DNA of 24,617 nucleotides from a virus: positions 1 through 24,617 of IMG/VR virus record IMGVR_UViG_3300024475_000023. One strand, written 5' to 3'. Shown in pieces: positions 2,869-23,011 of the stretch; the first letter of the stretch is position 1, and each line of letters opens with the position of its first letter. Under the pieces are notes generated by a model. The model was given only the letters and a program-made list of their open reading frames with translations. It did no database searches and was not told where the DNA came from. The translations under genes and the position numbers were made by a program.

Positions 2869-3078
2869 ATGAGGGAAACATTATTTCAATTATATTTTGT
2901 TAAAGGCGCAAGCGACCCAGAGGTTGTTGCTATGTGCAGGGCTTGCGAAGATGTACGCAAAGGGTTTCTTATGTCGAAGGAAGCTGCTAAAGTGTATATG
3001 TTATGCCAACATGAGCTAGAACAGTTTATTAGTGAGATGGACGAATACGAGAGACTACAGAGGAGAAGTGCAGGATGA
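2869..3078 (+). CDS. 69-residue helical protein, unknown function
   Basis: Starts MRETLFQLYFVKGASDPE behind AAGGTG, 6 bases upstream. It reads as helical throughout and carries three Cys residues (MCRACED and MLCQHE). Its stop overlaps the next start as ATGA. A frame on the opposite strand covers the same bases but lacks a plausible start context. No function is assigned. Confidence 0.65.
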   Translation: MRETLFQLYFVKGASDPEVVAMCRACEDVRKGFLMSKEAAKVYMLCQHELEQFISEMDEYERLQRRSAG

Positions 3079-3191
3079 TTGACGCAATGATTCAATTGGT
3101 ATTCTTTGCAGGGCTGTTTGTCGCACTCTACGGGGCGTGGCTGATAGTTGAGGATAAACAGAAAGCCTATAGGGAGAGAAATAAGAAATGA
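3075..3191 (+). CDS. Tiny single-pass membrane protein
   Basis: 38 residues coupled to the previous gene by an ATGA overlap, with AGGAG about 10 bases upstream. The hydrophobic segment at about residues 5-24 (MIQLVFFAGLFVALYGAWLI) is followed by a highly charged tail (EDKQKAYRERNKK). This is a typical small phage membrane protein, predicted to leave the basic tail in the cytoplasm. Function unknown. Confidence 0.6.
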   Translation: MIDAMIQLVFFAGLFVALYGAWLIVEDKQKAYRERNKK

Positions 3192-3501: not shown

Positions 3502-3702
3502 ATGGCGTTCAATGAAAAACAAAAACAAATATTGTGGAAAGCTGCGGAGATCTTGTCTAAGCGTAGGACAGCTAATAAGGTTTTTGTTCCTATATCCAGC
3601 AACAACGGCCACGGCCTGCTGTCTTTTGAGCATTGCTCACTAAAGCGTCAAGTAGGTTACGACTTGCTAGAGTTTGATAATTTACCGGGAAAGGGAGAGT
3701 AA
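3502..3702 (+). CDS. 66-residue protein, unknown function
   Basis: Begins MAFNEKQKQILWKAAEIL and ends PGKGE, starting one base after the previous stop. The first 22 residues look like a basic amphipathic helix, followed by mixed polar sequence with a central NNGHGLL. It immediately precedes the primase-helicase gene and is probably co-transcribed with it. No function can be assigned. Confidence 0.65.
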   Translation: MAFNEKQKQILWKAAEILSKRRTANKVFVPISSNNGHGLLSFEHCSLKRQVGYDLLEFDNLPGKGE

Positions 3703-3703
3703 T

Positions 3704-5317
3704 ATGACATTCCTAGCAACTCACCAGCCTTGTGACGCTTGTGGGTCTTCGGACGCGCTGGCAGTCAATGACAATGGCTCTACCAAGTGCTTTGCTTGTG
3801 GTGACTTCAAAAGAGGCGACGGCTCAACCTTGATAACCATGCCCGACATTGAAGAGACACCGCAACCAAAGCATAACTTCAGTGCTGTAGAGAACCTTCT
3901 AACCACTGGAAACTATAAGCCAGTAGTTGAGAGAGGTATTACTTCAGCAACCGCGAAAACCTACGGCGTTATCCACAATCCAGACAAAACCTACTTCTCC
4001 TACCACGTACCGGACGATGCTAACATCCCGACAGCTGCAAAAATACGACAGCATGACAAGCAGTTCTCTGTTGTCGGTGACTGGAGAGAGGCAGGTCTGT
4101 TCGGACAGCAACTATTCGCTAAAGGTGGCAAGACAGTTACAATCACTGAGGGCGAGTTTGACGCACTAGCTAGCTACCAGATGCAAGGTAGCAAGTACCC
4201 TGTAGTCAGTGTCAAGAATGGCGCTAGCGGTGCTCTAAAGGACTGTAAGGACGCTTACGAGTGGCTGGACAGCTTCGACACTATTATCATATCGTTTGAC
4301 AGCGATGAGCCGGGTGTTAAAGCTGCCCGAGAGGTAGCAGAGCTGTTCGGTGGCAAGTCTAAGGTGATGAAGTACCCACCACAGTACAAAGACGCTTGCG
4401 ACTTCCTTATCAATAACGACAGCCAGAGTTACATTGCATCATTCTGGGCGGCAGAGAGGTTCATCCCGGACGGCATCATCAACGGCTCAAGTCTCTGGGA
4501 CGAGGTCAATAGACCAGTAGAGACAGCTGCTGTAATGTATCCGTGGAAAGGTGTAAACAAACTAACCTTCGGTATCCGAGAAGCAGAACTGGTAACAATC
4601 ACTGCTGGCTCTGGTCTAGGTAAGTCTCAGTTTGTGAGAGAGATTGTCTGGCACATCCTACAGAATTCAGAGGACAACATCGGTCTGCTATTCCTTGAAG
4701 AGAATGCCCGCAAGACTGCACTGTCTCTTATGTCACTGGCAGCTAACAAGCCCTTACACCTACCAACTGTAGTGAGTACAGAAGAGGAGAGGTGGGAGTC
4801 CTTCGAGAAGACTATGGGGACGCAGAGACTGTATATGTTTGACCACTTCGGCAGCACCAGCATTGACAACATTGTCTCTCGCTGTCGCTACATGGCTAAA
4901 GCACTGGACACCAAGTTCCTCTTCCTCGACCACGTTAGTATTGTAGTGTCCGCTCAGAGCAACGGAGATGAGCGCAAGGCATTGGATGAGATCTGCACAA
5001 AGCTGAGAATGCTAGTGCAGGAGACTGGTATCACGCTATTCATGGTGAGCCACTTGAAGCGTCCAGACGGCAAAGGTCACGAGGAAGGCGCTGTCAGCTC
5101 GCTAGCACAGCTCAGAGGCTCTGCCAGTATCGCACAGCTCTCTGATATGGTGATAGGACTGGAGCGTAACGGTCAGGCTGATGATCCTATCGAGAGGAAC
5201 ACTACGCACGTCAGAGTTCTGAAGAATCGCTTTGCTGGTATTACAGGTCGTGCTTGTGGCTTGCTCTATAATCAAGACACTGGTAGAATGCAGGAAATAC
5301 TTGAGGAAGCCTTATGA
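3704..5317 (+). CDS. Primase-helicase (T7 gp4 type)
   Basis: 537 residues. It makes RNA primers and unwinds DNA at the phage replication fork as a hexameric ring. A four-Cys zinc site (C10, C13, C29, C32) comes first, for template recognition. A TOPRIM domain follows, with E149 in ITEGEFDALASYQ and D199/D201 in SFDSDEPG. The RecA-like helicase follows, with Walker A GSGLGKS at 302-308, Walker B ending at D409 (FLFLDH) and a later RGSASIAQLSD motif. The length is close to T7 gp4 (566 residues). I chose the ATG at 3704, behind GGGAGAG, over an upstream frame start at 3674 that overlaps the preceding gene. The stop overlaps the next ATG by four bases. Confidence 0.97.
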   Translation: MTFLATHQPCDACGSSDALAVNDNGSTKCFACGDFKRGDGSTLITMPDIEETPQPKHNFSAVENLLTTGNYKPVVERGITSATAKTYGVIHNPDKTYFSYHVPDDANIPTAAKIRQHDKQFSVVGDWREAGLFGQQLFAKGGKTVTITEGEFDALASYQMQGSKYPVVSVKNGASGALKDCKDAYEWLDSFDTIIISFDSDEPGVKAAREVAELFGGKSKVMKYPPQYKDACDFLINNDSQSYIASFWAAERFIPDGIINGSSLWDEVNRPVETAAVMYPWKGVNKLTFGIREAELVTITAGSGLGKSQFVREIVWHILQNSEDNIGLLFLEENARKTALSLMSLAANKPLHLPTVVSTEEERWESFEKTMGTQRLYMFDHFGSTSIDNIVSRCRYMAKALDTKFLFLDHVSIVVSAQSNGDERKALDEICTKLRMLVQETGITLFMVSHLKRPDGKGHEEGAVSSLAQLRGSASIAQLSDMVIGLERNGQADDPIERNTTHVRVLKNRFAGITGRACGLLYNQDTGRMQEILEEAL

Positions 5318-5511
5318 GATGTTTAGCCTGCAATGCCCTACTGACAGACTTTGAAGCAACTAGAAAGTCAGCTGCTTCTGGTCAATTTCTTGATCTGTGC
5401 AACCATTGCTATAGCTACACATCTGAGGATATTGACACAATCGACCGCATGGATTTAAAATCTGAGGCAGATTACGAAAGCATGGGAGATGATGATGAGC
5501 AAAATAGGTAA
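5314..5511 (+). CDS. Small zinc-ribbon protein
   Basis: 65 residues with paired cysteines C3/C6 (MRCLAC) and C29/C32 (CNHC), the arrangement of a zinc ribbon, followed by an acidic tail (GDDDEQNR). Its ATG overlaps the primase-helicase stop (ATGA). I associate small proteins of this kind with the space between primase-helicase and polymerase in T7-like aquatic phages. They are thought to assist nucleic-acid transactions, but no activity is known to me. The zinc binding is inferred from spacing only. Confidence 0.8.
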   Translation: MRCLACNALLTDFEATRKSAASGQFLDLCNHCYSYTSEDIDTIDRMDLKSEADYESMGDDDEQNR

Positions 5512-5692
5512 CTTTGCGCTAGAACTGCAAGAGCGTAAGGTAGAAGTAAGACAGCTAAACCCTTACAACAAATACAGTAACGAAGAGACTACGGCAGGGC
5601 AGTACTATGTTTACTACAGTAACTACAGACAAGAGAGTAATATCGTGGTTCAGTTGCGGTGCGGCAAGCGCAGCGGCGACTTATCTAGCTAG
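5495..5692 (+). CDS. Small protein with tail replaced by an insertion
   Basis: 65 residues from the ATG at 5495, with GGGAG (5484-5488) as its ribosome binding site; ATGs at 5489 and 5492 are too close to that site. The first 39 codons (MSKIGNFALELQERK onward) are unique sequence. The last ~26 are only a shifted reading of the start of the PAPS-reductase-like gene and look arbitrary. At the repeat at 5598-5611 the frame would, if joined directly to the matching repeat before the polymerase gene, continue to a TGA at 6444-6446 and give a 58-residue protein. I infer that the gene has lost its original end. It may still be translated. Confidence 0.5.
   Translation: MSKIGNFALELQERKVEVRQLNPYNKYSNEETTAGQYYVYYSNYRQESNIVVQLRCGKRSGDLSS
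5598..5611 (+). repeat. 14-bp direct repeat, left copy
   Basis: GGCAGTACTATGTT, identical to positions 6373-6386. It contains the start codon of the PAPS-reductase-like gene. The pair brackets that gene exactly. Confidence 0.85.
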
Positions 5693-6371
5693 AAAAAAAT
5701 ATAAAACACCAAATTTTCAAGCTGTTTATTGTAGAGTCGCTGAAGAACACGTAGATAATTTTAGATTTTTAAAAGATTTTTCTAATAAATTTACAATACA
5801 TGTAAAAATCATAGGCGACGAGGCTGCTAATTTTTCAATATATGACGTTTTTGAGCAAAGAAAGTTTATAAAAGGGCCGAACGGCGCTCCTTGCACTATG
5901 ATCTTAAAGAAAAATGTAAGAAAAAAATATCAAAAAGCAGACGACATTCAAGTATTTGGATACACCAGTGAAGAAGAAGATAGAGCAAACAGGTTTATAG
6001 ACTCTAATAACGATGTTGATGTTGATTTTATTCTCCTAGAAAACAACTGGACTAAGAAAGACTGTTTAGAGTTTGTTAGAGACAACAACATAGAAATACC
6101 AACTATGTATAAGCTAGGTTATAACAACAATAACTGCGTTGGCTGCGTTAAGGGTGGTATGGGGTACTGGAATAAGATAAGGGTAGACTTTCCCGATTCC
6201 TTTGATAAGATGGCTAAGTTAGAAAGAAAATTAAACCATGCCATCAACAAAGATAAGAACGGCCCTGTGTTCTTGGATGTTCTAGCGAGTGATAGAGGTA
6301 ACTTTAAATTGGACGTTCCTAGTGATTGCGGATTTACTTGCGAATGGAAACAAGAAACACTTAAGTTTTAG
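5607..6371 (+). CDS. PAPS-reductase-like (PP-loop) cargo protein
   Basis: 254 residues of the adenine-nucleotide-binding PP-loop family that includes PAPS reductase, DndC-like and other sulfur-transfer enzymes. The loop SCGAASA at 16-22 lies just after the first strand (VISWF). A GAPCTMILKK segment around C96, GYTSEEEDR at 118-125, and a CVGC pair (C177, C180) followed by KGG are consistent with the phage branch of this family. Substrate and partner cannot be read from the sequence. Candidates are sulfation or sulfur metabolism, tRNA or DNA sulfur chemistry, or nucleotide hydrolysis. Base composition is unlike its neighbours: 32 G+C in 120 bases at 5701-5820 against 59 in 120 at 7261-7380. 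It sits between matching 14-bp repeats, so it is probably acquired cargo. Confidence 0.85.
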   Translation: MFTTVTTDKRVISWFSCGAASAAATYLARKKYKTPNFQAVYCRVAEEHVDNFRFLKDFSNKFTIHVKIIGDEAANFSIYDVFEQRKFIKGPNGAPCTMILKKNVRKKYQKADDIQVFGYTSEEEDRANRFIDSNNDVDVDFILLENNWTKKDCLEFVRDNNIEIPTMYKLGYNNNNCVGCVKGGMGYWNKIRVDFPDSFDKMAKLERKLNHAINKDKNGPVFLDVLASDRGNFKLDVPSDCGFTCEWKQETLKF

Positions 6372-6372
6372 A

Positions 6373-6386
6373 GGCAGTACTATGTT
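6373..6386 (+). repeat. 14-bp direct repeat, right copy
   Basis: GGCAGTACTATGTT, identical to 5598-5611. It contains the polymerase start codon (6382-6384). Confidence 0.85.
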
Positions 6387-8025
6387 GATTACACTGGATA
6401 TAGAAACGAACACCAAGCACGACAAGATCTGGTGCGTAGTCACTGAAGAAGTTCAGACAGGCAACCTTGCTGTCCACACTACTCCAGAGACTCTCGCTCC
6501 ACTGCTGCGTGACGCTATCTGTGTGATTGGCCACAACATCATAGGCTTCGATGCTCCAGTGCTTGACAAGGTGTGGAAACTACAGATACCAAATAGAAAG
6601 CTAGTGGATACTCTAGTGCTCAGTCGTCTGTATAGCCCTTCTCTGGAAGGTGGTCATAGTTTAGATAGCTGGGGCAAGCGACTGGGCGACCACAAGATAG
6701 TCTTCTCTGACTATGATGCTGGACTGTCTGACGAGATGATTGACTATTGTAAGCAAGATGTTAAATTGACTACTACACTGTATAAGCATCTTGTAAATTC
6801 ACTCAAATCAGAAGGATTCTCTGAGCAATGCGCAGATTTAGAGCACAGAGTCGCTATCATTATGGCGGTTCAGGAGAGAAATGGCTTCGCACTAGACGTA
6901 AATGGAGCGACATCCCTATATCAGGACATAACACACAAGATGAGACTGATCACGACCGACCTACAGAAGGTGTTCCCGCCGATAGTAGAGCAGAGGTGGT
7001 CAGAGAAGACAGGAAAGCAGTTGAAGGACAAGGTGACGGAGTTTAACGTAGGCTCTAGACAGCAGATAGCAGAGAGGCTGGAAGCAGTAGGTGTTACATT
7101 CTCTCTGAAAACTGAGAAGGGCGCTACCATTGTCAACGAGAAAGTGTTAGAAGGAATTGACGTACCAGAAGCTAAGATGATTCACGAGTATCTGATGTTG
7201 CAGAAGCGAGCAGCACAGATTGATTCTTGGTTAGCCCACCAGCGTGACGGTAGAGTGCATGGTCGTGTTATAACCAACGGAGCTGTAACAGGTCGTATGA
7301 CACACCACAGTCCTAACATGGCTCAAGTGCCGTCAGTGTCTGCACCGTATGGCAAGGAATGTAGATCATTCTGGACTGTACCTGCTGGACACAAGCTAGT
7401 AGGTATTGACGCTAGTGGTCTTGAGCTGCGTATGCTTGCACACTATATGCGTGACGAGAACTACACTAACGAGATTCTCAGCGGTGACATCCACACTGCC
7501 AATATGAAAGCAGCAGGACTCACTGATCGCAATCAGGCAAAGACATTCATATATGCTTTCCTGTACGGTGCTGGCCCAGCTAAGATTGGAGAGATAGTCA
7601 ACGGAGGCTATTCAGAAGGCCAGAAGCTAATGTCAGCCTTCCTGAAGAACACACCTGCACTGGCGCGTCTACGTGAGCGTGTAGCGAAGTTTGCAGAGAC
7701 AGGAACACTACCGGGACTAGACGGCAGACGCTTGCGTGTAAGGTCTCAGCACGCTGCTTTAAACACGCTGCTGCAAGGTGCTGGTGCTATTGTAATGAAA
7801 CAGGCTCTGGTGGTATTGTGTGATACGCTAGATACTTTAGGAATTCCCTACAAGCTAGTAGCTAATGTTCACGATGAGTTTCAAATAGAGACTCCTGAGC
7901 ACTTCGCTAAAGCTGTAGGAAAACAAGCAGTAAAAGCCATACAGAAAGCAGGAGATCAATTGAAACTGCGCTGCCCTCTGGATGGTGAGTTCAACATAGG
8001 TAATAATTGGGCAGAAACACATTGA
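6382..8025 (+). CDS. DNA polymerase, family A, with 3'-5' exonuclease
   Basis: 547 residues. It is the replicative polymerase, T7 gp5 type but shorter than gp5 (704). The proofreading domain has D6/E8 (LDIETN), a GHNIIGFDAPVL motif and D126 (YCKQDVKLT). Polymerase motif A has D343 (GIDASGLELRML). The O-helix reads RNQAKTFIYAFLYG from R383, with K387 and Y391 at the positions of T7 R518, K522 and Y526. Motif C is HDEF at 497-500. I chose the start at 6382 because exonuclease motif I follows directly, as in T7; an upstream frame start at 6289 overlaps the cargo gene. All catalytic residues are present, so it should be active. The last bases overlap the -35 of the SSB promoter. Confidence 0.97.
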   Translation: MLITLDIETNTKHDKIWCVVTEEVQTGNLAVHTTPETLAPLLRDAICVIGHNIIGFDAPVLDKVWKLQIPNRKLVDTLVLSRLYSPSLEGGHSLDSWGKRLGDHKIVFSDYDAGLSDEMIDYCKQDVKLTTTLYKHLVNSLKSEGFSEQCADLEHRVAIIMAVQERNGFALDVNGATSLYQDITHKMRLITTDLQKVFPPIVEQRWSEKTGKQLKDKVTEFNVGSRQQIAERLEAVGVTFSLKTEKGATIVNEKVLEGIDVPEAKMIHEYLMLQKRAAQIDSWLAHQRDGRVHGRVITNGAVTGRMTHHSPNMAQVPSVSAPYGKECRSFWTVPAGHKLVGIDASGLELRMLAHYMRDENYTNEILSGDIHTANMKAAGLTDRNQAKTFIYAFLYGAGPAKIGEIVNGGYSEGQKLMSAFLKNTPALARLRERVAKFAETGTLPGLDGRRLRVRSQHAALNTLLQGAGAIVMKQALVVLCDTLDTLGIPYKLVANVHDEFQIETPEHFAKAVGKQAVKAIQKAGDQLKLRCPLDGEFNIGNNWAETH

Positions 8026-8104: not shown

Positions 8105-8503
8105 ATGGAACAAGTAAAGCCAGTAACAATCTCAGCAGACGTAATGTGGGCAAACCTGAACGAGCGCAACAAGCTCTCCGGTAAGTACCAGATCAACTTG
8201 TCTAACCTGTCACCTAAAGCTGCTGACGCTCTCGAAGAGCAAGGCATCAATGTACGTGAGAAAGCTGATCAAGGTAAGTTCATCACCTGCAAATCTAACA
8301 ATTCTATTCGTGTGTACGACACCGATGGCGAAGAGCTGCACAATGTACTGATCGGCAATGGCTCAAAAGCTAAAGCAGTGATTGGTCACTATGACTGGAC
8401 TAGCCCGTCAGGTGCTCGTGGTCGTAGCCCATCTCTGATGAAGCTGGTGATCACTGACCTAGTGCAATACTCGCCAGAAGTAGAACTGGACGAAGCATTA
8501 TGA
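8105..8503 (+). CDS. Single-stranded DNA-binding protein
   Basis: 132 residues. It is expected to coat single-stranded DNA at the fork and recruit polymerase and primase-helicase. The evidence is a predicted beta-rich OB-like body (SGKYQINLSNLS, then FITCKSNNSIRVYDTDGEE), a short acidic end (VELDEAL) and its place directly after DNA polymerase. It is much shorter than T7 gp2.5 (232 residues) and matches a compact SSB type found in T7-like aquatic phages. The acidic tail is weak compared with classical SSBs. A strong promoter of its own and an AAAGAGGAAA ribosome binding region fit a protein needed in large amounts. Confidence 0.8.
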   Translation: MEQVKPVTISADVMWANLNERNKLSGKYQINLSNLSPKAADALEEQGINVREKADQGKFITCKSNNSIRVYDTDGEELHNVLIGNGSKAKAVIGHYDWTSPSGARGRSPSLMKLVITDLVQYSPEVELDEAL

Positions 8504-10815: not shown

Positions 10816-10983
10816 ATGGCATCCACGTACTATGAGATACTGGAGAAACTAGAGCAGCTGGATGAAGTAACACTACTGGAAGTACTTGATATAACATCAC
10901 GAGACTTAGTAGCTAAGTTCAGCAACAGGATCAACGACAGGCTAGAAGAACTGCAAGAGGATTTTAAAGATGAGTATCAATGA
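10816..10983 (+). CDS. 55-residue acidic helical protein
   Basis: Starts MASTYYEILEKLEQLDE one base after the phosphoesterase stop, with GGAG six bases upstream; an earlier in-frame start at 10795 overlaps that gene and is unlikely. Two helices with heptad-like Leu spacing (ILEKLEQLDEVTLLEVLDI and RLEELQEDF) suggest a small dimer or adaptor. It overlaps the next gene by 14 bases. Function unknown. Confidence 0.75.
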   Translation: MASTYYEILEKLEQLDEVTLLEVLDITSRDLVAKFSNRINDRLEELQEDFKDEYQ

Positions 10984-11317
10984 TGCTACACCAGAAATGT
11001 GGGACGCACTACGTAAGAAGCATCCACCTATTGAGAACAACTTGCTAACAAACGCACTAAATAGCTACGCAGCAGAAGCAGAGAAAGAAGCTGAAGACAT
11101 GGTGACAGCACCGCGTCATTACAACACAGGCAACATAGAGTGTATTGATGCAATAGAGGAGTCCATGTCCAGTGTTGCATTCAAAGGCTATCTCAAAGGC
11201 AACTGCATGAAGTACCTGTGGCGCTATGACTACAAAGGCAAGCAGGTAGAAGACTTAAAGAAAGCTGGTTGGTACTTAAACAAATTAACAAAGATGGTTG
11301 TAGAGGAGAATAAATAA
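10970..11317 (+). CDS. DUF3310 protein (T7 gp1.7-like)
   Basis: 115 residues. The DUF3310 domain occupies about residues 48-108: PRHYNTGNIECIDAI, then FKGYLKGNCMKYLWRYDYKG, then EDLKKAGWYL. In T7, gp1.7 carries this domain and acts as an unusual nucleotide kinase on dTMP and dGMP. Whether this shorter protein has that activity is not known from the sequence. Its position four genes from ribonucleotide reductase supports a role in nucleotide supply. The TAA stop overlaps the next ATG. Confidence 0.88.
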   Translation: MSINDATPEMWDALRKKHPPIENNLLTNALNSYAAEAEKEAEDMVTAPRHYNTGNIECIDAIEESMSSVAFKGYLKGNCMKYLWRYDYKGKQVEDLKKAGWYLNKLTKMVVEENK

Positions 11318-16928: not shown

Positions 16929-18565
16929 TAGATTCCACCCCCGTAAGATGGTGTTAAATATTTAGAAATATCAATTTCGTCTGCTGTTGTTGCAGGAGCT
17001 ACTGAGCCGTAGCCATAACCGCCTGAGGCAAGTGAGCTTAGGAATCCTTCACCGCCTAGCCAAGAGTCTGATGTGTAGTTTGGTGTAAATCCTTGCGATG
17101 GCGACCCAAACAAGTTAGACAAGTCTCCATAGTTAAACTCACCGTCCCCACCTAACCAGCCTGACGAAGCATAAGTAGGCTCTGCACTATCGGAAGGTTT
17201 AAACAAGCTGCTCAATATACCAGCGTAATCAAAACTTCCACCAGAAGGTTGGGAGCTACCGCCAAGCAATCCTTGAGCTGTTTGAGACAGTAACTGCTTT
17301 TGTGCAAACTCTCTGTCAGATGCTATCTTAGCGGCTTGTAAGTAACTCTCGAGACCTGTCTGGCCCAGCTGCGCTTGTAAAGTTGCTCCGGTACGTTGAC
17401 CTGTACCAGCAATGTTAGCGATGTCAGTGCCATAGCCAAGAGCTGCCAGAGCTTGTTGTTGTGGGGTAAAGCCAGCACCAAGAAGACCAGTAGCGCCTGC
17501 CAGAGCTTGTTGCTGTTCTGCAAGTGCTTGGTTACGTGCTGAAAGACTAGCACCAGCCATAGCTTCTTGTCGTGCTTTCTCATAAGCAAACTGCTCAGGT
17601 GATCCACCATACTGTGCAGTCTGTAGACCGCTACGACCACCAGCAAACAAACGCTCTTGCAGTAATGCTTGTTGACGCTCTTCTTCAGGGCGCTGTGTGG
17701 CTCGTATTTGCTCGTATAAGGCCGCCTGTTGTGCAGCAGGGTCTTGACCTACTTGTCCAAACAAACCTTGTGCTTGACCCAATAGCTGCTCTTGTAGCGC
17801 CTGTTGCTGTGGGCTAAGCTCTAGTGTGTAACCGCCTTGAGGAGTAGTGCCTGCACGTGCCAAGCTAGAGGTAACAGTGAATGGTTTAAACTCTGTACCA
17901 GCTACTGCTTGCTGTCCTAACGCACCTGCTGTACCTAGAGCAGCTTGTCCTACCTGCTGTGCTCCTTGTAGCGCTTGCTGTCCTTCGTAGTAAGAACCTA
18001 GAGCACTTCCAAAATCTCCTAAGTTAAAGTTACCACCTAAGAGACCACCAAGAGCCAAGCCACCTGCTACAGCTCCTGTGGAAGGAGTAGAACCAACAGT
18101 CATACCAGTCAAAGGATTAACACCTGTGGCAGTCATAGTCCCTGTAGGCTGTTGTGGCATCTGAGTGTTAAAGAACCCGCTGCGGGTCTCCCCCTGTAAG
18201 TCTCCTAAAGCTGCACCGCCATATACGGAAGAACTGCTAGGGCCGCTAGAGCCTGTTTGTGGCAGGTTTGAAGATAGTGTTGTTTTATAATAATCCTCTG
18301 CGCCGGGGTTATTATCAAAATAGTTTTTTAACCTGTCTCGATACCCTATTATAGTTGAGCTTCCTTCTCTTGACTTGCCTGTTATAGGATCAATATACTT
18401 CCGAATATCGTGGGTCTCCACAGTAGGTCTTACAGGCATGTCGCTAAACGCACTTGGTTGCTGAGGTACGCCACCAGTTACACCTTGTGGGCCAGCCATG
18501 CTCATTTGATTAGGCATCATTCTCATTTGATCAGGGATGTATCTACCTTGTGCATCATACGCCAT
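16928..18565 (-). CDS. Gln/Gly-rich virion protein, probable internal protein
   Basis: 545 residues. It starts with Met/Gln/Pro-rich disordered sequence (MRMMPNQMSMAGPQG), then has a Gly/Ala-rich hydrophobic stretch (AVAGGLALGGLLGGNFNLGD). A long Gln/Ala helical region follows (ALQEQLLGQAQGLFGQ, QALAEQQQALAGATGLLG), and then a Ser/Gly-rich tail holding two degenerate copies of a ~32-residue unit ending WLGG(D/E)G. I associate this composition with internal or ejection-type proteins of marine short-tailed phages. No enzymatic motif is present. Both ends form TAATG junctions. Confidence 0.65.
   Translation of the reverse strand: MAYDAQGRYIPDQMRMMPNQMSMAGPQGVTGGVPQQPSAFSDMPVRPTVETHDIRKYIDPITGKSREGSSTIIGYRDRLKNYFDNNPGAEDYYKTTLSSNLPQTGSSGPSSSSVYGGAALGDLQGETRSGFFNTQMPQQPTGTMTATGVNPLTGMTVGSTPSTGAVAGGLALGGLLGGNFNLGDFGSALGSYYEGQQALQGAQQVGQAALGTAGALGQQAVAGTEFKPFTVTSSLARAGTTPQGGYTLELSPQQQALQEQLLGQAQGLFGQVGQDPAAQQAALYEQIRATQRPEEERQQALLQERLFAGGRSGLQTAQYGGSPEQFAYEKARQEAMAGASLSARNQALAEQQQALAGATGLLGAGFTPQQQALAALGYGTDIANIAGTGQRTGATLQAQLGQTGLESYLQAAKIASDREFAQKQLLSQTAQGLLGGSSQPSGGSFDYAGILSSLFKPSDSAEPTYASSGWLGGDGEFNYGDLSNLFGSPSQGFTPNYTSDSWLGGEGFLSSLASGGYGYGSVAPATTADEIDISKYLTPSYGGGI
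17050..17238 (-). repeat. Intragenic tandem repeat, ~32-residue units
   Basis: Two adjacent units in the 545-residue protein share F(D/N)Y at the start, LS(S/N)LF in the middle, P(T/N)Y(A/T)S near the end and WLGG(D/E)G as the close. The DNA copies have diverged. Confidence 0.65.
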
Positions 18566-20331: not shown

Positions 20332-20978
20332 TATACAGTTACCCAGATAGTTTCTTCAGGATGTCTAGCAGCGTCTAGTGCGATAGCGTCTGACAAGGTT
20401 CTGTCAGCCAAAGCAAACAACTCTGCTGCCGATGTACCACCAGTTTCGCCACGCTCTCTAGCACCCAAAGCAGTGGCTATCTGAATCACTGGAGATGATG
20501 GTATAAACATGCTGTCTGTATCTTCAACCAAATCAGCTGTACGCAGAACCACGTTGAACCGGAGATTGTACTCAGAGTCTGGAGCTGGATAGATGTCAAC
20601 AGCACTGTCGCCGTTAGAGTCAATGCCATTCCAGCTGTAGTATTTAGGAGCAGCGTTTGGCGGATTCTCGATCAAGTAAGCATTGTTCATCCAAGTTGAC
20701 GGACGATACTCCATGAACCAGTTGGAGGAGTCGTTAATAACATCCAGAGTCTTGATGCGATCTTGTGAGCCTACCAGCGTGTAGTTGTAAACTCCAGCAA
20801 TGGTGTTGACTGTCAGCGTGTTACGTAAAGCTGTCCAATCCCAAGCATCCTCTACAGTACGCTTTGCATCGTTGACAAACTCACCCACTAACTTGGAGTA
20901 ACTGTTCTGTGCAACAGCGTCTACTTCTTCCTCGCGGAGTCTACGCAATACACTGTTTACCAGCTGTAGATATGTCAT
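20331..20978 (-). CDS. Head-tail connector / tail adaptor protein
   Basis: 215 residues, starting MTYLQLVNSVLRRLREEEVD. An amino helical part (KLVGEFVNDAKRTVEDAWDW) is followed by a beta-rich middle (NTLTVNTIAGVYNYTLVG) and a final helix pair (SAAELFALADRTLSDAIALD). This helix-beta-helix layout and the position just before the nozzle-like gene match the adaptor ring of short-tailed phages (T7 gp11 or P22 gp4 type), which joins portal to tail. The assignment rests on layout and order. The gene is coupled to the 678-residue gene by ATGA. Confidence 0.72.
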   Translation of the reverse strand: MTYLQLVNSVLRRLREEEVDAVAQNSYSKLVGEFVNDAKRTVEDAWDWTALRNTLTVNTIAGVYNYTLVGSQDRIKTLDVINDSSNWFMEYRPSTWMNNAYLIENPPNAAPKYYSWNGIDSNGDSAVDIYPAPDSEYNLRFNVVLRTADLVEDTDSMFIPSSPVIQIATALGARERGETGGTSAAELFALADRTLSDAIALDAARHPEETIWVTV

Positions 20979-23011
20979 GCTTGATACCTTCTTTGTAATT
21001 TAACGAGTTCTGGCATTTCCGAACCAACTTGTGTTTTAAATCTGAACAGTTCATCACCAAACAAGCTGTCTGTTGTTCTAGTGGGAGATACTACTTGTTG
21101 TTGTTGTTGTGCTTGACCTGCTTGTGCAAGTTGACCACCTAACATACCTCCTACAGCTCCTTTGAGAATGTCGTAGAAGGGGTTTAGCACATCGTCAATC
21201 TTGCTACCAACAGCTCTAGCAGCATCTTCAATTGCAGGAGCTTTCTCTTCTACTGCTGCTATTACCGGCTTAGCTGCTTCCACTACAGGATCAACAATTG
21301 GCTCTAATGCTGTACCGCCAGCTCTTACAACATCTTCTACTGTACTGCCAGCTTCTCTAAAGACATCTTCAACACCTGATAAATCTGGGGCAATGTCTTT
21401 AATGTTCTGGAAAATGGCATCGTCAAAGAAGCTGCCAACATCTCCTACAACTTCTTTTAAGGCATCACCAACAGCTTTGATAGGCTCTGCTATAGCGTCT
21501 GGTAAGCTACCGCCTTCTTGTAAGTAAGCTAGACCACCTTCAAGCAAAGCATCTTTTAAATCAGCACCACCTGCCAGAGAAGCAATAGTCTGGTTGAGAC
21601 CAACAGCTAAGTCGTCAGGCTGCATACCTAAGTTAGCAGCGCCACCTACGTTAATGTTAATCTTGTTTATAGCGTCTTGGACAAGAGGAGCACCAAACGC
21701 CTGTACAACACCTTCTGCTAAGTTGTCAGCAGCAGCGGCTCGAACAAGACCTGTTGTCTGACCATAGTCCAGCCCAAACAAACCTTGACCGGGATCTGCT
21801 GGGCCTATTACTCCTTCAGCGACTCCTTGTGGCGGACGAATAGCACCTGCAATCTGAAGTGAGTTTAAACCGGCAGTTGCTATCTCCATAGGCGACACGT
21901 CATAACCAGCTGCTGCTTTAACAGCTGTAGTAGCAACTTGAATTGGTGGGGCTATCATTCCTGCTACTTGAATTAAAGGATTGTTCAGCATGTTCTCATA
22001 AAATCCTGTAGCTTCTTGTAAAACCTTACCGCCTCCGCCTATACCGCCATAAAGAAAACCAGTCTCCTCGCTGCCTCTAAGACGATCAGTCGGGTTTGAG
22101 GCGTATGCTTCAGATTCTAACTGCTTTTTTGAATAAGGAGTTTTCCATTGGTCGGGGTAAAAAACAATCTCTCGTATCTCACCATTGCTATATACTTTAG
22201 CTGGCTTACCGTTAAACATTGTAATTTTCGCATTAGGATCATCAGCTGCTTCCACACTCAAAACAGACTGCTCATACTTTTCTTTGTCAAGATCCCCGCT
22301 TTCATACAGAAAATACAAGTAACGCTTCTGCGAGGCTGAGTCTAGTGTGTCATAAACCTTTTGAAACTGTGTAGGATCTTCTTTCTGCAAGCCTTTGAGA
22401 TTAGCTGTCTGCTTCTCTACAGAACTTAAAAAGTCTTTTGTATAGTCAAGGTCTCTTGGCATAGCTGACGTTCCATCCTGAAACATCGAAGCATCGTAAC
22501 CAACACCTAAGCCACTTATATTACCAATACCTTGAGAAGCTCCTCCGCTAAACAATCCTGAAACAGTTGCTAACTGCTCTGGAGTTGCTTTAGCTAAGTT
22601 ATCTAAGAAAGCATTAGGATCTCCAGTAGGAACGACAGGTTTAACTTGTCCATACTTAGCTGTGTCTGAATATGCCCAAGGAGTAATTAATTGTTGAGCA
22701 GCTGAGTAATCTACAGGAGCAGCAGGAGCAGACATGCTTACAGCAGGAGTAGGTTCATCTTCAACTGGTGTAAGAGTTGGAGGACGAAAAAAGCCAGCTT
22801 TGTCATCAGCAAAAGAATCAGGAAACGGATCAGCATTTAAATCTACGACTTCTTCACGAGCAGGTTGCTTAACAGGCTGCTTAGTAACAGGATTTTGTAG
22901 AGAGGCCACATACGCATCTAGCTCTACCCTTTCTGAAGGCAGGATGTTGGCTCTGAAATAATCAAAACCTCTTGATCCTATCGGCGGTATTCTGCTAACA
23001 TCTAAAGCCAT
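20975..23011 (-). CDS. Large low-complexity virion-type protein
   Basis: 678 residues. A Pro/Ala/Val-rich, probably disordered first 130 residues precedes a region with a Gly-rich turn (ETGFLYGGIGGGGKV). Hydrophobic Ala-rich segments follow (IQVAGMIAPPIQVATTAVKA). After that come repeated amphipathic helices (VFREAGSTVEDVVRAGGTAL, PVVEAAKPVIAAVEEKAPAI) and a poly-Gln stretch near the end. The order of membrane-active and helical segments resembles ejection proteins, but it lies between lysis-type genes and the connector gene, so a scaffold, tail or other structural role is also possible. No catalytic motif is visible. Confidence 0.6.
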   Translation of the reverse strand: MALDVSRIPPIGSRGFDYFRANILPSERVELDAYVASLQNPVTKQPVKQPAREEVVDLNADPFPDSFADDKAGFFRPPTLTPVEDEPTPAVSMSAPAAPVDYSAAQQLITPWAYSDTAKYGQVKPVVPTGDPNAFLDNLAKATPEQLATVSGLFSGGASQGIGNISGLGVGYDASMFQDGTSAMPRDLDYTKDFLSSVEKQTANLKGLQKEDPTQFQKVYDTLDSASQKRYLYFLYESGDLDKEKYEQSVLSVEAADDPNAKITMFNGKPAKVYSNGEIREIVFYPDQWKTPYSKKQLESEAYASNPTDRLRGSEETGFLYGGIGGGGKVLQEATGFYENMLNNPLIQVAGMIAPPIQVATTAVKAAAGYDVSPMEIATAGLNSLQIAGAIRPPQGVAEGVIGPADPGQGLFGLDYGQTTGLVRAAAADNLAEGVVQAFGAPLVQDAINKININVGGAANLGMQPDDLAVGLNQTIASLAGGADLKDALLEGGLAYLQEGGSLPDAIAEPIKAVGDALKEVVGDVGSFFDDAIFQNIKDIAPDLSGVEDVFREAGSTVEDVVRAGGTALEPIVDPVVEAAKPVIAAVEEKAPAIEDAARAVGSKIDDVLNPFYDILKGAVGGMLGGQLAQAGQAQQQQQVVSPTRTTDSLFGDELFRFKTQVGSEMPELVKLQRRYQA

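What the first reader, a model, noticed from the sequence alone, without database searches (positions are those of the whole stretch)
5598..6386. AT-rich PAPS-reductase-like gene inserted exactly between 14-bp direct repeats
GGCAGTACTATGTT occurs at 5598-5611 and 6373-6386. Each copy contains a start codon: the cargo gene's (5607) and the polymerase's (6382). The DNA between is clearly different in composition (32 G+C in 120 bases at 5701-5820 against 59 in 120 at 7261-7380). Deleting one repeat plus the insert would leave a continuous small-gene/polymerase junction with the polymerase start and its upstream sequence intact. This suggests a recently acquired cargo gene that entered by recombination at a short homology and kept the expression signal of the gene behind it. 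A sulfur-type PP-loop enzyme placed in a replisome operon could mean a nucleic-acid or nucleotide modification.
Basis: partly seen in the sequence, partly recalled or inferred. Interest (0 to 1): 0.75.

Follow-up and report, generated by a model that had tools for sequence, protein, structure and literature searches.

The report
Phage sulfur-enzyme gene cassette beside polymerase
A marine phage carries a single gene for a sulfur-handling enzyme, probably one that marks DNA with sulfur taken from the host, set exactly between two copies of the translation-start signal of its DNA polymerase; comparison with relatives shows that phages of this group gain, lose and swap this gene cleanly at that spot.

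Summary
In detail: GGCAGTACTATGTT lies at 5598-5611 and 6373-6386 and brackets a PAPS-reductase-like gene (5607-6371). Relatives settle the history. Of 93 non-redundant close relatives, 84 lack the gene; 74 of these have a plain 290-298-nt primase-to-polymerase gap. Nine carry the gene at the same base, each between two copies identical within that genome and 775 bp apart. Occupancy needs 7 changes on the flank tree; one clade is rejected (p=1e-10). Near-identical phages (L158, L155, L009) carry a Mom-like gene, a C5-methyltransferase or this gene in the same stretch. The repeat is the polymerase's ribosome-binding/start region, duplicated, so both genes keep a start signal. Two inferences fail: low G+C is intrinsic to this gene (18 of 18 loci sampled), and the window's copy is old (dS at least that of the polymerase). 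The protein is 49% identical to "PptA" of Vibrio phage VH-5, solved in PDB 21fy, an entry that also holds E. coli IscS. It has the PP-loop, three invariant Cys fit for a 4Fe-4S cluster, and a C-terminal Cys pair. Best reading: a one-gene, host-IscS-fed sulfurtransferase, probably acting on phage DNA against host defence. The chemistry is inferred.

The parts
5598..5611 (+). left copy of the repeat GGCAGTACTATGTT; ribosome-binding/start region of the cargo gene, also the in-frame 3' part of small ORF 2 (QYYV)
6373..6386 (+). right copy of the repeat; ribosome-binding/start region of the DNA polymerase gene
   Evidence: single copy in empty relatives
5598..6372 (+). 775-bp presence/absence cassette (one repeat copy plus cargo)
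   Evidence: gap 1068 nt here against 290-298 nt in 74 empty relatives; nine occupied relatives with copies 775 bp apart
5607..6371 (+). cargo gene: PptA-like PP-loop (PAPS-reductase-like) protein, 254 aa, predicted sulfurtransferase
   Evidence: PF01507, PHROG 424, PDB 21fy_C PptA E 1.8e-72, model pLDDT 84.5
5489..5692 (+). small ORF 2; its last codons run out of frame into the cargo, replacing the end found in empty relatives
5314..5511 (+). small ORF 1, Cys-rich, conserved in the group
3674..5317 (+). primase-helicase, left flank (start codon TTG uncertain)
   Evidence: PHROG 239 E 8e-175; Pfam
6382..8025 (+). family-A DNA polymerase, right flank
   Evidence: PF00476 E 3e-50
8105..8503 (+). 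weak Gp2.5-like ssDNA-binding/annealing protein, a possible helper of short-homology exchange
   Evidence: PHROG 112 E 5e-5; role speculative

Best explanation
A one-gene accessory cassette (a moron) at a hot spot between primase-helicase and DNA polymerase. Shown: the site is occupied or empty to the base among relatives, and occupied copies are bounded by a duplication of the polymerase's ribosome-binding/start region, so cargo and polymerase each have a start signal. Shown: occupancy is patchy and cargo phylogeny conflicts with flank phylogeny, so the gene has moved between lineages. Inferred: it is gained and swapped by annealing or recombination at the short start-region repeat, and lost by clean deletion between the two copies. 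Inferred function: like its homologue PptA of Vibrio phage VH-5, the enzyme takes persulfide sulfur from the host cysteine desulfurase IscS, activates a nucleic-acid target with ATP at its PP-loop and delivers sulfur through a three-Cys 4Fe-4S cluster and/or the C-terminal Cys pair, most likely to phage DNA (phosphorothioation or base thiolation), as protection from host nucleases.
For: Site: 74 empty junctions of 290-298 nt and 9 occupied at the same base; a collection-wide pattern scan finds 73 contigs with the repeat, 9 with two copies, all 775 bp apart and all with this gene, 64 with one copy. Mobility: 7 label changes on the flank tree, 6 forced by well-supported branches, one clade rejected p=1.2e-10; L008 and L009 share 94.9% of the cargo DNA but 64% of the left flank and 76% of the polymerase fragment, while each has a twin without the gene with 99.6-100% left-flank identity; the cargo tree rejects the flank clade L001-L007, p=0.008. 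Function: PDB 21fy chain C 'PptA', E 1.8e-72; PptA is the Vibrio phage VH-5 protein, 100% identical; E. coli IscS is in the same entry; invariant PP-loop and Cys set in 45 homologues; model resembles APS/PAPS reductases (Z about 12) and the 4Fe-4S thiolases TtuA, NcsA, LarE; SspD profile match E 5e-10; purifying selection, dN 0.06-0.075 with dS 1.4-1.8; neighbours in unrelated phages are mostly replication/recombination genes; in near-identical phages the same stretch holds a Mom-like gene or a C5-MTase instead.
Against: No paper on PptA is in the library, so what PptA thiolates is unknown to me and its name proves nothing. Presence of IscS in 21fy is read from the sequence list, not from coordinates. 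No Dnd/Ssp partner (ATPase, nickase) was found in the window. The disordered C-terminal tail with a [DE]C motif also recalls true PAPS reductases. For the window itself, one old acquisition followed by losses in relatives fits as well as a separate gain.
Confidence: 0.6

Rival explanations
1. Sulfur-metabolism helper: the protein is a CysH-type PAPS/APS reductase that boosts host sulfate assimilation during infection (auxiliary metabolic gene).
For: Pfam PF01507 and PHROG 424 names; best VIA matches are APS/PAPS reductases, Z about 12; flexible tail with an invariant Cys in a [DE]C motif.
Against: No curated cysH model reached; the ECG(I/L)H His is absent and a second tail Cys is invariant; PptA is deposited together with IscS, a cysteine desulfurase with no part in sulfate reduction; company of replication and DNA-modification genes.
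Confidence: 0.15
2. tRNA or nucleotide thiolase: same IscS-fed chemistry, but the target is tRNA (as for TtuA/NcsA) or the dNTP pool.
For: Top Foldseek hits are tRNA thiolases and LarE with three-Cys 4Fe-4S clusters.
Against: Neighbours are replication and DNA-modification genes, not tRNA genes; profile match is to SspD.
Confidence: 0.2
3. Counter-defence by sequestration: the protein binds host IscS to starve host Dnd/Ssp phosphorothioation or another IscS-dependent defence, without modifying anything itself.
For: IscS in the PDB entry of the homologue; single gene with no partner.
Against: All catalytic PP-loop and Cys positions are invariant in 45 homologues, which pure binding would not need.
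Confidence: 0.1
4. Old single insertion and repeated clean loss: the group's ancestor carried the gene and most lineages lost it by deletion between the direct repeats; little or no transfer.
For: Direct repeats allow exact deletion; window cargo dS is about equal to polymerase dS; the window is the deepest branch in the cargo tree.
Against: Cargo tree rejects flank clades (p=0.008) and L008/L009 share 94.9% of cargo with 64% of flank; repeat copies are identical within each of nine genomes although they differ between genomes.
Confidence: 0.25
5. A true mobile element that makes an 18-bp target-site duplication.
For: Both copies always carry the local haplotype, as a target duplication would give.
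Against: No recombinase, endonuclease or terminal inverted repeats in the insert, which is one PP-loop ORF from start to stop.
Confidence: 0.07

Closest known systems
PptA of Vibrio phage vB_VhaP_VH-5 (PDB 21fy)
   Same: 49% identity over about 246 aa; PP-loop and the C96, C177, C180, C241, C245 equivalents all present; standalone phage gene
   Different: The VH-5 gene follows the RNA polymerase gene rather than lying between primase and polymerase; no repeat cassette was looked for there
SspD / DndC, PP-loop enzymes of bacterial DNA phosphorothioation
   Same: Same superfamily; DndC is described with a three-Cys 4Fe-4S centre and a further Cys pair, and IscS can replace DndA (PMC10853773); SspD profile match E 5e-10
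   Different: No ATPase or nickase partner here; phage cargo, not a bacterial defence operon; no DndC profile match
4Fe-4S thiolases TtuA, NcsA, LarE
   Same: Best Foldseek matches; PP-loop fold with three-Cys cluster
   Different: 10-20% identity; tRNA or cofactor substrates
Assimilatory PAPS/APS reductase (CysH)
   Same: Fold (VIA Z about 12) and Pfam family
   Different: No curated cysH match; tail motif [DE]C[GS]xxC without the His
Phage morons and recombination at short boundary sequences
   Same: Gene present in one genome and absent from a relative between two contiguous genes; short conserved boundary sequences proposed as exchange points (PMC3029335)
   Different: No promoter or terminator of its own; the boundary is the downstream gene's own ribosome-binding/start region in duplicate
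PAPS-reductase-like insert of Thermus phage Tsatsa and P23-77
   Same: A PAPS-reductase homologue inserted between genes that are adjacent in a relative, function open (PMC11437467)
   Different: Unrelated phages; no flanking repeat reported in the passage read

Membership tests
PptA-like phage PP-loop family (PDB 21fy) | full-length sequence homology | tested here: met
   phmmer E 1.8e-72 over residues 6-252
PptA-like phage PP-loop family (PDB 21fy) | PP-loop SCGxxS and Cys set C96, C177, C180, C241, C245 | tested here: met
   invariant in 45 homologues, present in PptA
PptA-like phage PP-loop family (PDB 21fy) | works with cysteine desulfurase IscS | not testable with these tools
   the homologue's PDB entry also holds E. 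coli IscS; binding by the window protein not tested
Assimilatory PAPS/APS reductase (CysH) | match to curated cysH / APS-reductase models | tested here: not met
   NCBIfam gives only PRK08557 and PRK08576, far below cut-off
Assimilatory PAPS/APS reductase (CysH) | C-terminal ECG(I/L)H catalytic motif | tested here: not met
   tail reads [DE]C[GS]xxC, no His
Dnd/Ssp DNA phosphorothioation system | PP-loop subunit of DndC/SspD type | tested here: inconclusive
   SspD profile E 5e-10, no DndC profile hit
Dnd/Ssp DNA phosphorothioation system | partner ATPase and nickase/DNA-binding subunits in the locus | tested here: not met
   none among the window genes scanned
Dnd/Ssp DNA phosphorothioation system | sulfur in the DNA backbone | not testable with these tools
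   needs mass spectrometry of phage DNA
Phage moron | present or absent between two otherwise contiguous genes in close relatives | tested here: met
Phage moron | own promoter and terminator around the ORF | tested here: not met
   the cassette runs from start codon to stop codon plus the duplicated start region; no room for either
Transposon or homing element | encodes its own recombinase or endonuclease | tested here: not met
   the insert holds one PP-loop ORF

The most novel reading that the evidence does not exclude
A single-gene phage DNA-sulfuration system: one phage enzyme plus the host's IscS suffices to put sulfur into phage DNA, and phages exchange it with Mom-like and C5-methyltransferase genes at a replisome hot spot as interchangeable anti-restriction cards, with the duplicated polymerase start region as the exchange point.
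Probability: 0.4. Interest if true: 0.8.

Novelty: new variant of a known kind. Interest (0 to 1): 0.55.

Why it matters
Viral 'PAPS reductase' genes are widely reported and usually counted as sulfur-metabolism helpers (cysH). For this family the evidence points instead to nucleic-acid sulfur chemistry fed by host IscS, which would change how such genes are read in ocean viromes. The site also gives an unusually clean view of how phages gain, lose and swap single genes: matched twins that differ by the cassette, with both start signals kept. Such twins make the gene's effect directly testable.

Tried and rejected
Low G+C as evidence of recent arrival: rejected, the gene is AT-rich relative to its surroundings in 18 of 18 loci. 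Higher protein identity of the cargo (88-90%) than of the polymerase (78-80%) as evidence of recent transfer to the window: rejected, synonymous divergence is not lower; the difference is stronger constraint. The 14-bp repeat as significant by itself: weak. Long direct repeats around the neighbouring MTase/Mom insertions: none; those junctions share only the short stop/start sequence. PDB entry 21fy among the Foldseek or VIA rows shown: absent (that copy ends April 2026), so the link rests on sequence. Papers on PptA: none relevant in the library (further searches). Isolate phages with the same junction: none found; nearest are Pelagibacter and other phages over short stretches. Plasmid records: only distant homologues.

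Full report
WHAT IS THERE. The two copies of GGCAGTACTATGTT are exact and at the stated places. The first supplies the start codon of a 254-aa ORF (5607-6371), the second the start of the family-A DNA polymerase (6382-8025). Upstream lie a primase-helicase (3674-5317) and two small ORFs (5314-5511, 5489-5692). By itself a 14-bp exact repeat is little: shuffled sequence gives 1.4 such pairs per window and 0.13 pairs within 1 kb. The repeat is the polymerase's translation-start region (in relatives GAGG, seven bases, ATG).

EMPTY AND OCCUPIED SITES. I fetched relatives of the cargo, the polymerase and the primase from IMG/VR. Among non-redundant close relatives, 74 have a primase-to-polymerase gap of 290-298 nt and lack the gene. 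Nine (L001-L009) have the gene at the same base; in seven the gap is 1068-1071 nt as in the window, in L009 and L004 it is longer because of extra material at the neighbouring small-ORF-1 boundary. Ten more lack the gene but have another insert at that neighbouring boundary or lack the primase on the contig. A scan of the whole collection for GAGGCARTAYTATGTTGAWTAC found 73 contigs: nine with two copies, always 775 bp apart and always with this gene; 64 with one copy. In each of the nine genomes the two 18-bp copies are identical to each other although the sequence differs between genomes (GAGGCAATACT..., GAGGCAGTATT...). In the window the same 18 positions differ at three, leaving 14 bp of exact match.

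PATCHY AND MOBILE, BUT OLD IN THIS GENOME. On a tree of flank DNA (67 rows) the label 'occupied' needs seven changes, six of them forced by well-supported branches, and one clade is rejected (p=1.2e-10). L008 and L009 share 94.9% of cargo DNA but only 64% of the left flank and 76% of the polymerase fragment, while each has a relative without the gene whose left flank is 99.6-100% identical. The cargo tree rejects the flank clade L001-L007 (p=0.008), and the flanks mildly reject the cargo grouping L004-L007 plus L009 (p=0.025). So the gene has moved between lineages. For the window, however, cargo synonymous divergence from the others (dS 1.4-1.8, near saturation) is not below that of the polymerase (1.2-1.4); the higher protein identity reflects stronger constraint (dN 0.06-0.075 against 0.15-0.17). 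Low G+C is no sign of recent arrival either: the gene is lower in G+C than its surroundings in all 18 loci sampled, including one at 51.5% against 56.8%. Clean deletion between the repeats would restore an empty site exactly, so loss may account for much of the patchiness.

HOW IT GETS THERE. In more distant phages (about 70-76% identity in the cargo protein) the gene can also sit between primase and polymerase, but with TAATG stop/start overlaps and no repeat. In this group the cassette runs from start codon to stop codon and is followed by a second copy of the polymerase start region. The neighbouring C5-MTase and Mom-like insertions have no long flanking repeat; their junctions share only the short stop/start sequence. 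Recombination at gene edges, with selection for products that keep the polymerase's ribosome-binding site, explains both. A weak Gp2.5-like annealing protein is encoded just downstream (E 5e-5); its part in this is speculation. That both copies carry the local haplotype could mean duplication of recipient sequence on entry, crossover near the repeat edges, or homogenisation; ten genomes do not decide.

A HOT SPOT FOR DNA-MODIFICATION GENES. L158, L155 and L009 have 99-100% identical small-ORF and polymerase starts. L158 carries a Mom-like DNA-modification gene (PF25680, E 3e-36; PHROG 1384), L155 a C5-methyltransferase cut by its contig start, and L009 this gene plus a remnant of about 75 bp of the Mom-like gene. 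L004 carries methyltransferase and this gene together. The Mom-like gene of L158 and the methyltransferase of L155 share their last 35 bp, so swaps kept the 3' end of the earlier occupant. In unrelated phages most neighbours scanned are again replication or recombination genes, with different polymerases and helicases.

WHAT THE PROTEIN IS. Pfam PF01507, PHROG 424, SspD profile E 5e-10, no curated cysH model. The one strong solved relative is PDB 21fy chain C, named PptA (E 1.8e-72). The PptA sequence is identical to a Vibrio phage VH-5 protein annotated as hypothetical. I tested whether the same entry holds a sulfur donor: E. coli IscS, identical in sequence to 1p3w, is listed for 21fy. In 45 homologues R10, the PP-loop SCGxxS, C96, C177, C180, C241 and C245 are invariant. 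The predicted model (mean pLDDT 84.5, tail 237-254 below 50) matches APS/PAPS reductases (Z about 12) and, by Foldseek, the 4Fe-4S thiolases TtuA, NcsA and LarE. Three cysteines in that arrangement fit a 4Fe-4S cluster, as described for DndC, which also has a further Cys pair (PMC10853773). This is inference from pattern; cluster geometry was not measured.

MECHANISM PROPOSED, STEP BY STEP. Shown: cassette, duplicated start region, gain/loss/transfer in the group, constraint on the enzyme, homologue solved in an entry with IscS. Inferred: IscS hands persulfide to the phage enzyme; ATP activates the target at the PP-loop; sulfur is placed in phage nucleic acid, most likely DNA given the company the gene keeps; the mark blunts host nucleases. 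What PptA acts on I could not learn: no paper on it is in the library. Rivals are a CysH-type helper, a tRNA or nucleotide thiolase, and simple sequestration of IscS.

VERDICT. Observation confirmed; interpretation right on insertion site, repeat and likely function class, wrong on recency and on what composition shows. As a kind it is a phage moron at a short boundary sequence (compare PMC3029335), with the twist that the boundary is the downstream gene's own start region in duplicate, and with cargo from a newly solved, apparently one-gene sulfurtransferase family.

Noticed in passing
L159:4641-5411 and 4654-5394 (also L191, L137, L132, L147, L004): The C5-methyltransferase gene overlaps over nearly its whole length with a second + strand ORF in another frame that itself hits a DNA-methyltransferase PHROG (phrog_1008, E 2.6e-24). 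Both frames are open in all six loci while the third frame has 16-22 stops, and the overlapping protein is 63-95% identical between loci: a likely dual-coding gene.
   Followed up: partly
L158:1320-1934; L009 about 3012-3087: A Mom-like DNA-modification gene lies between primase and small ORF 1 in L158; the near-identical phage L009 keeps only its last ~75 bp, and L155 has a C5-methyltransferase there sharing the last 35 bp.
   Followed up: partly
window 5314-5511: Small ORF 1 is Cys-rich (MRCxxC ... CNHC), conserved in the group, without a Pfam or PHROG match; possible zinc-ribbon protein in the replisome operon.
   Followed up: no
window 10970-11317: A 115-aa ORF matches the C-terminal part of phage nucleotide-kinase families (E 5e-30) although far shorter than a kinase.
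   Followed up: no
window 16931-18565 and 20978-23011 (- strand): Two long ORFs (545 and 678 aa) in the late region have no PHROG match.
   Followed up: no
window 1-24617: Eleven exact direct-repeat pairs of 14 bp or more against 1.4 in shuffled sequence; apart from the pair studied here they were not examined.
   Followed up: no
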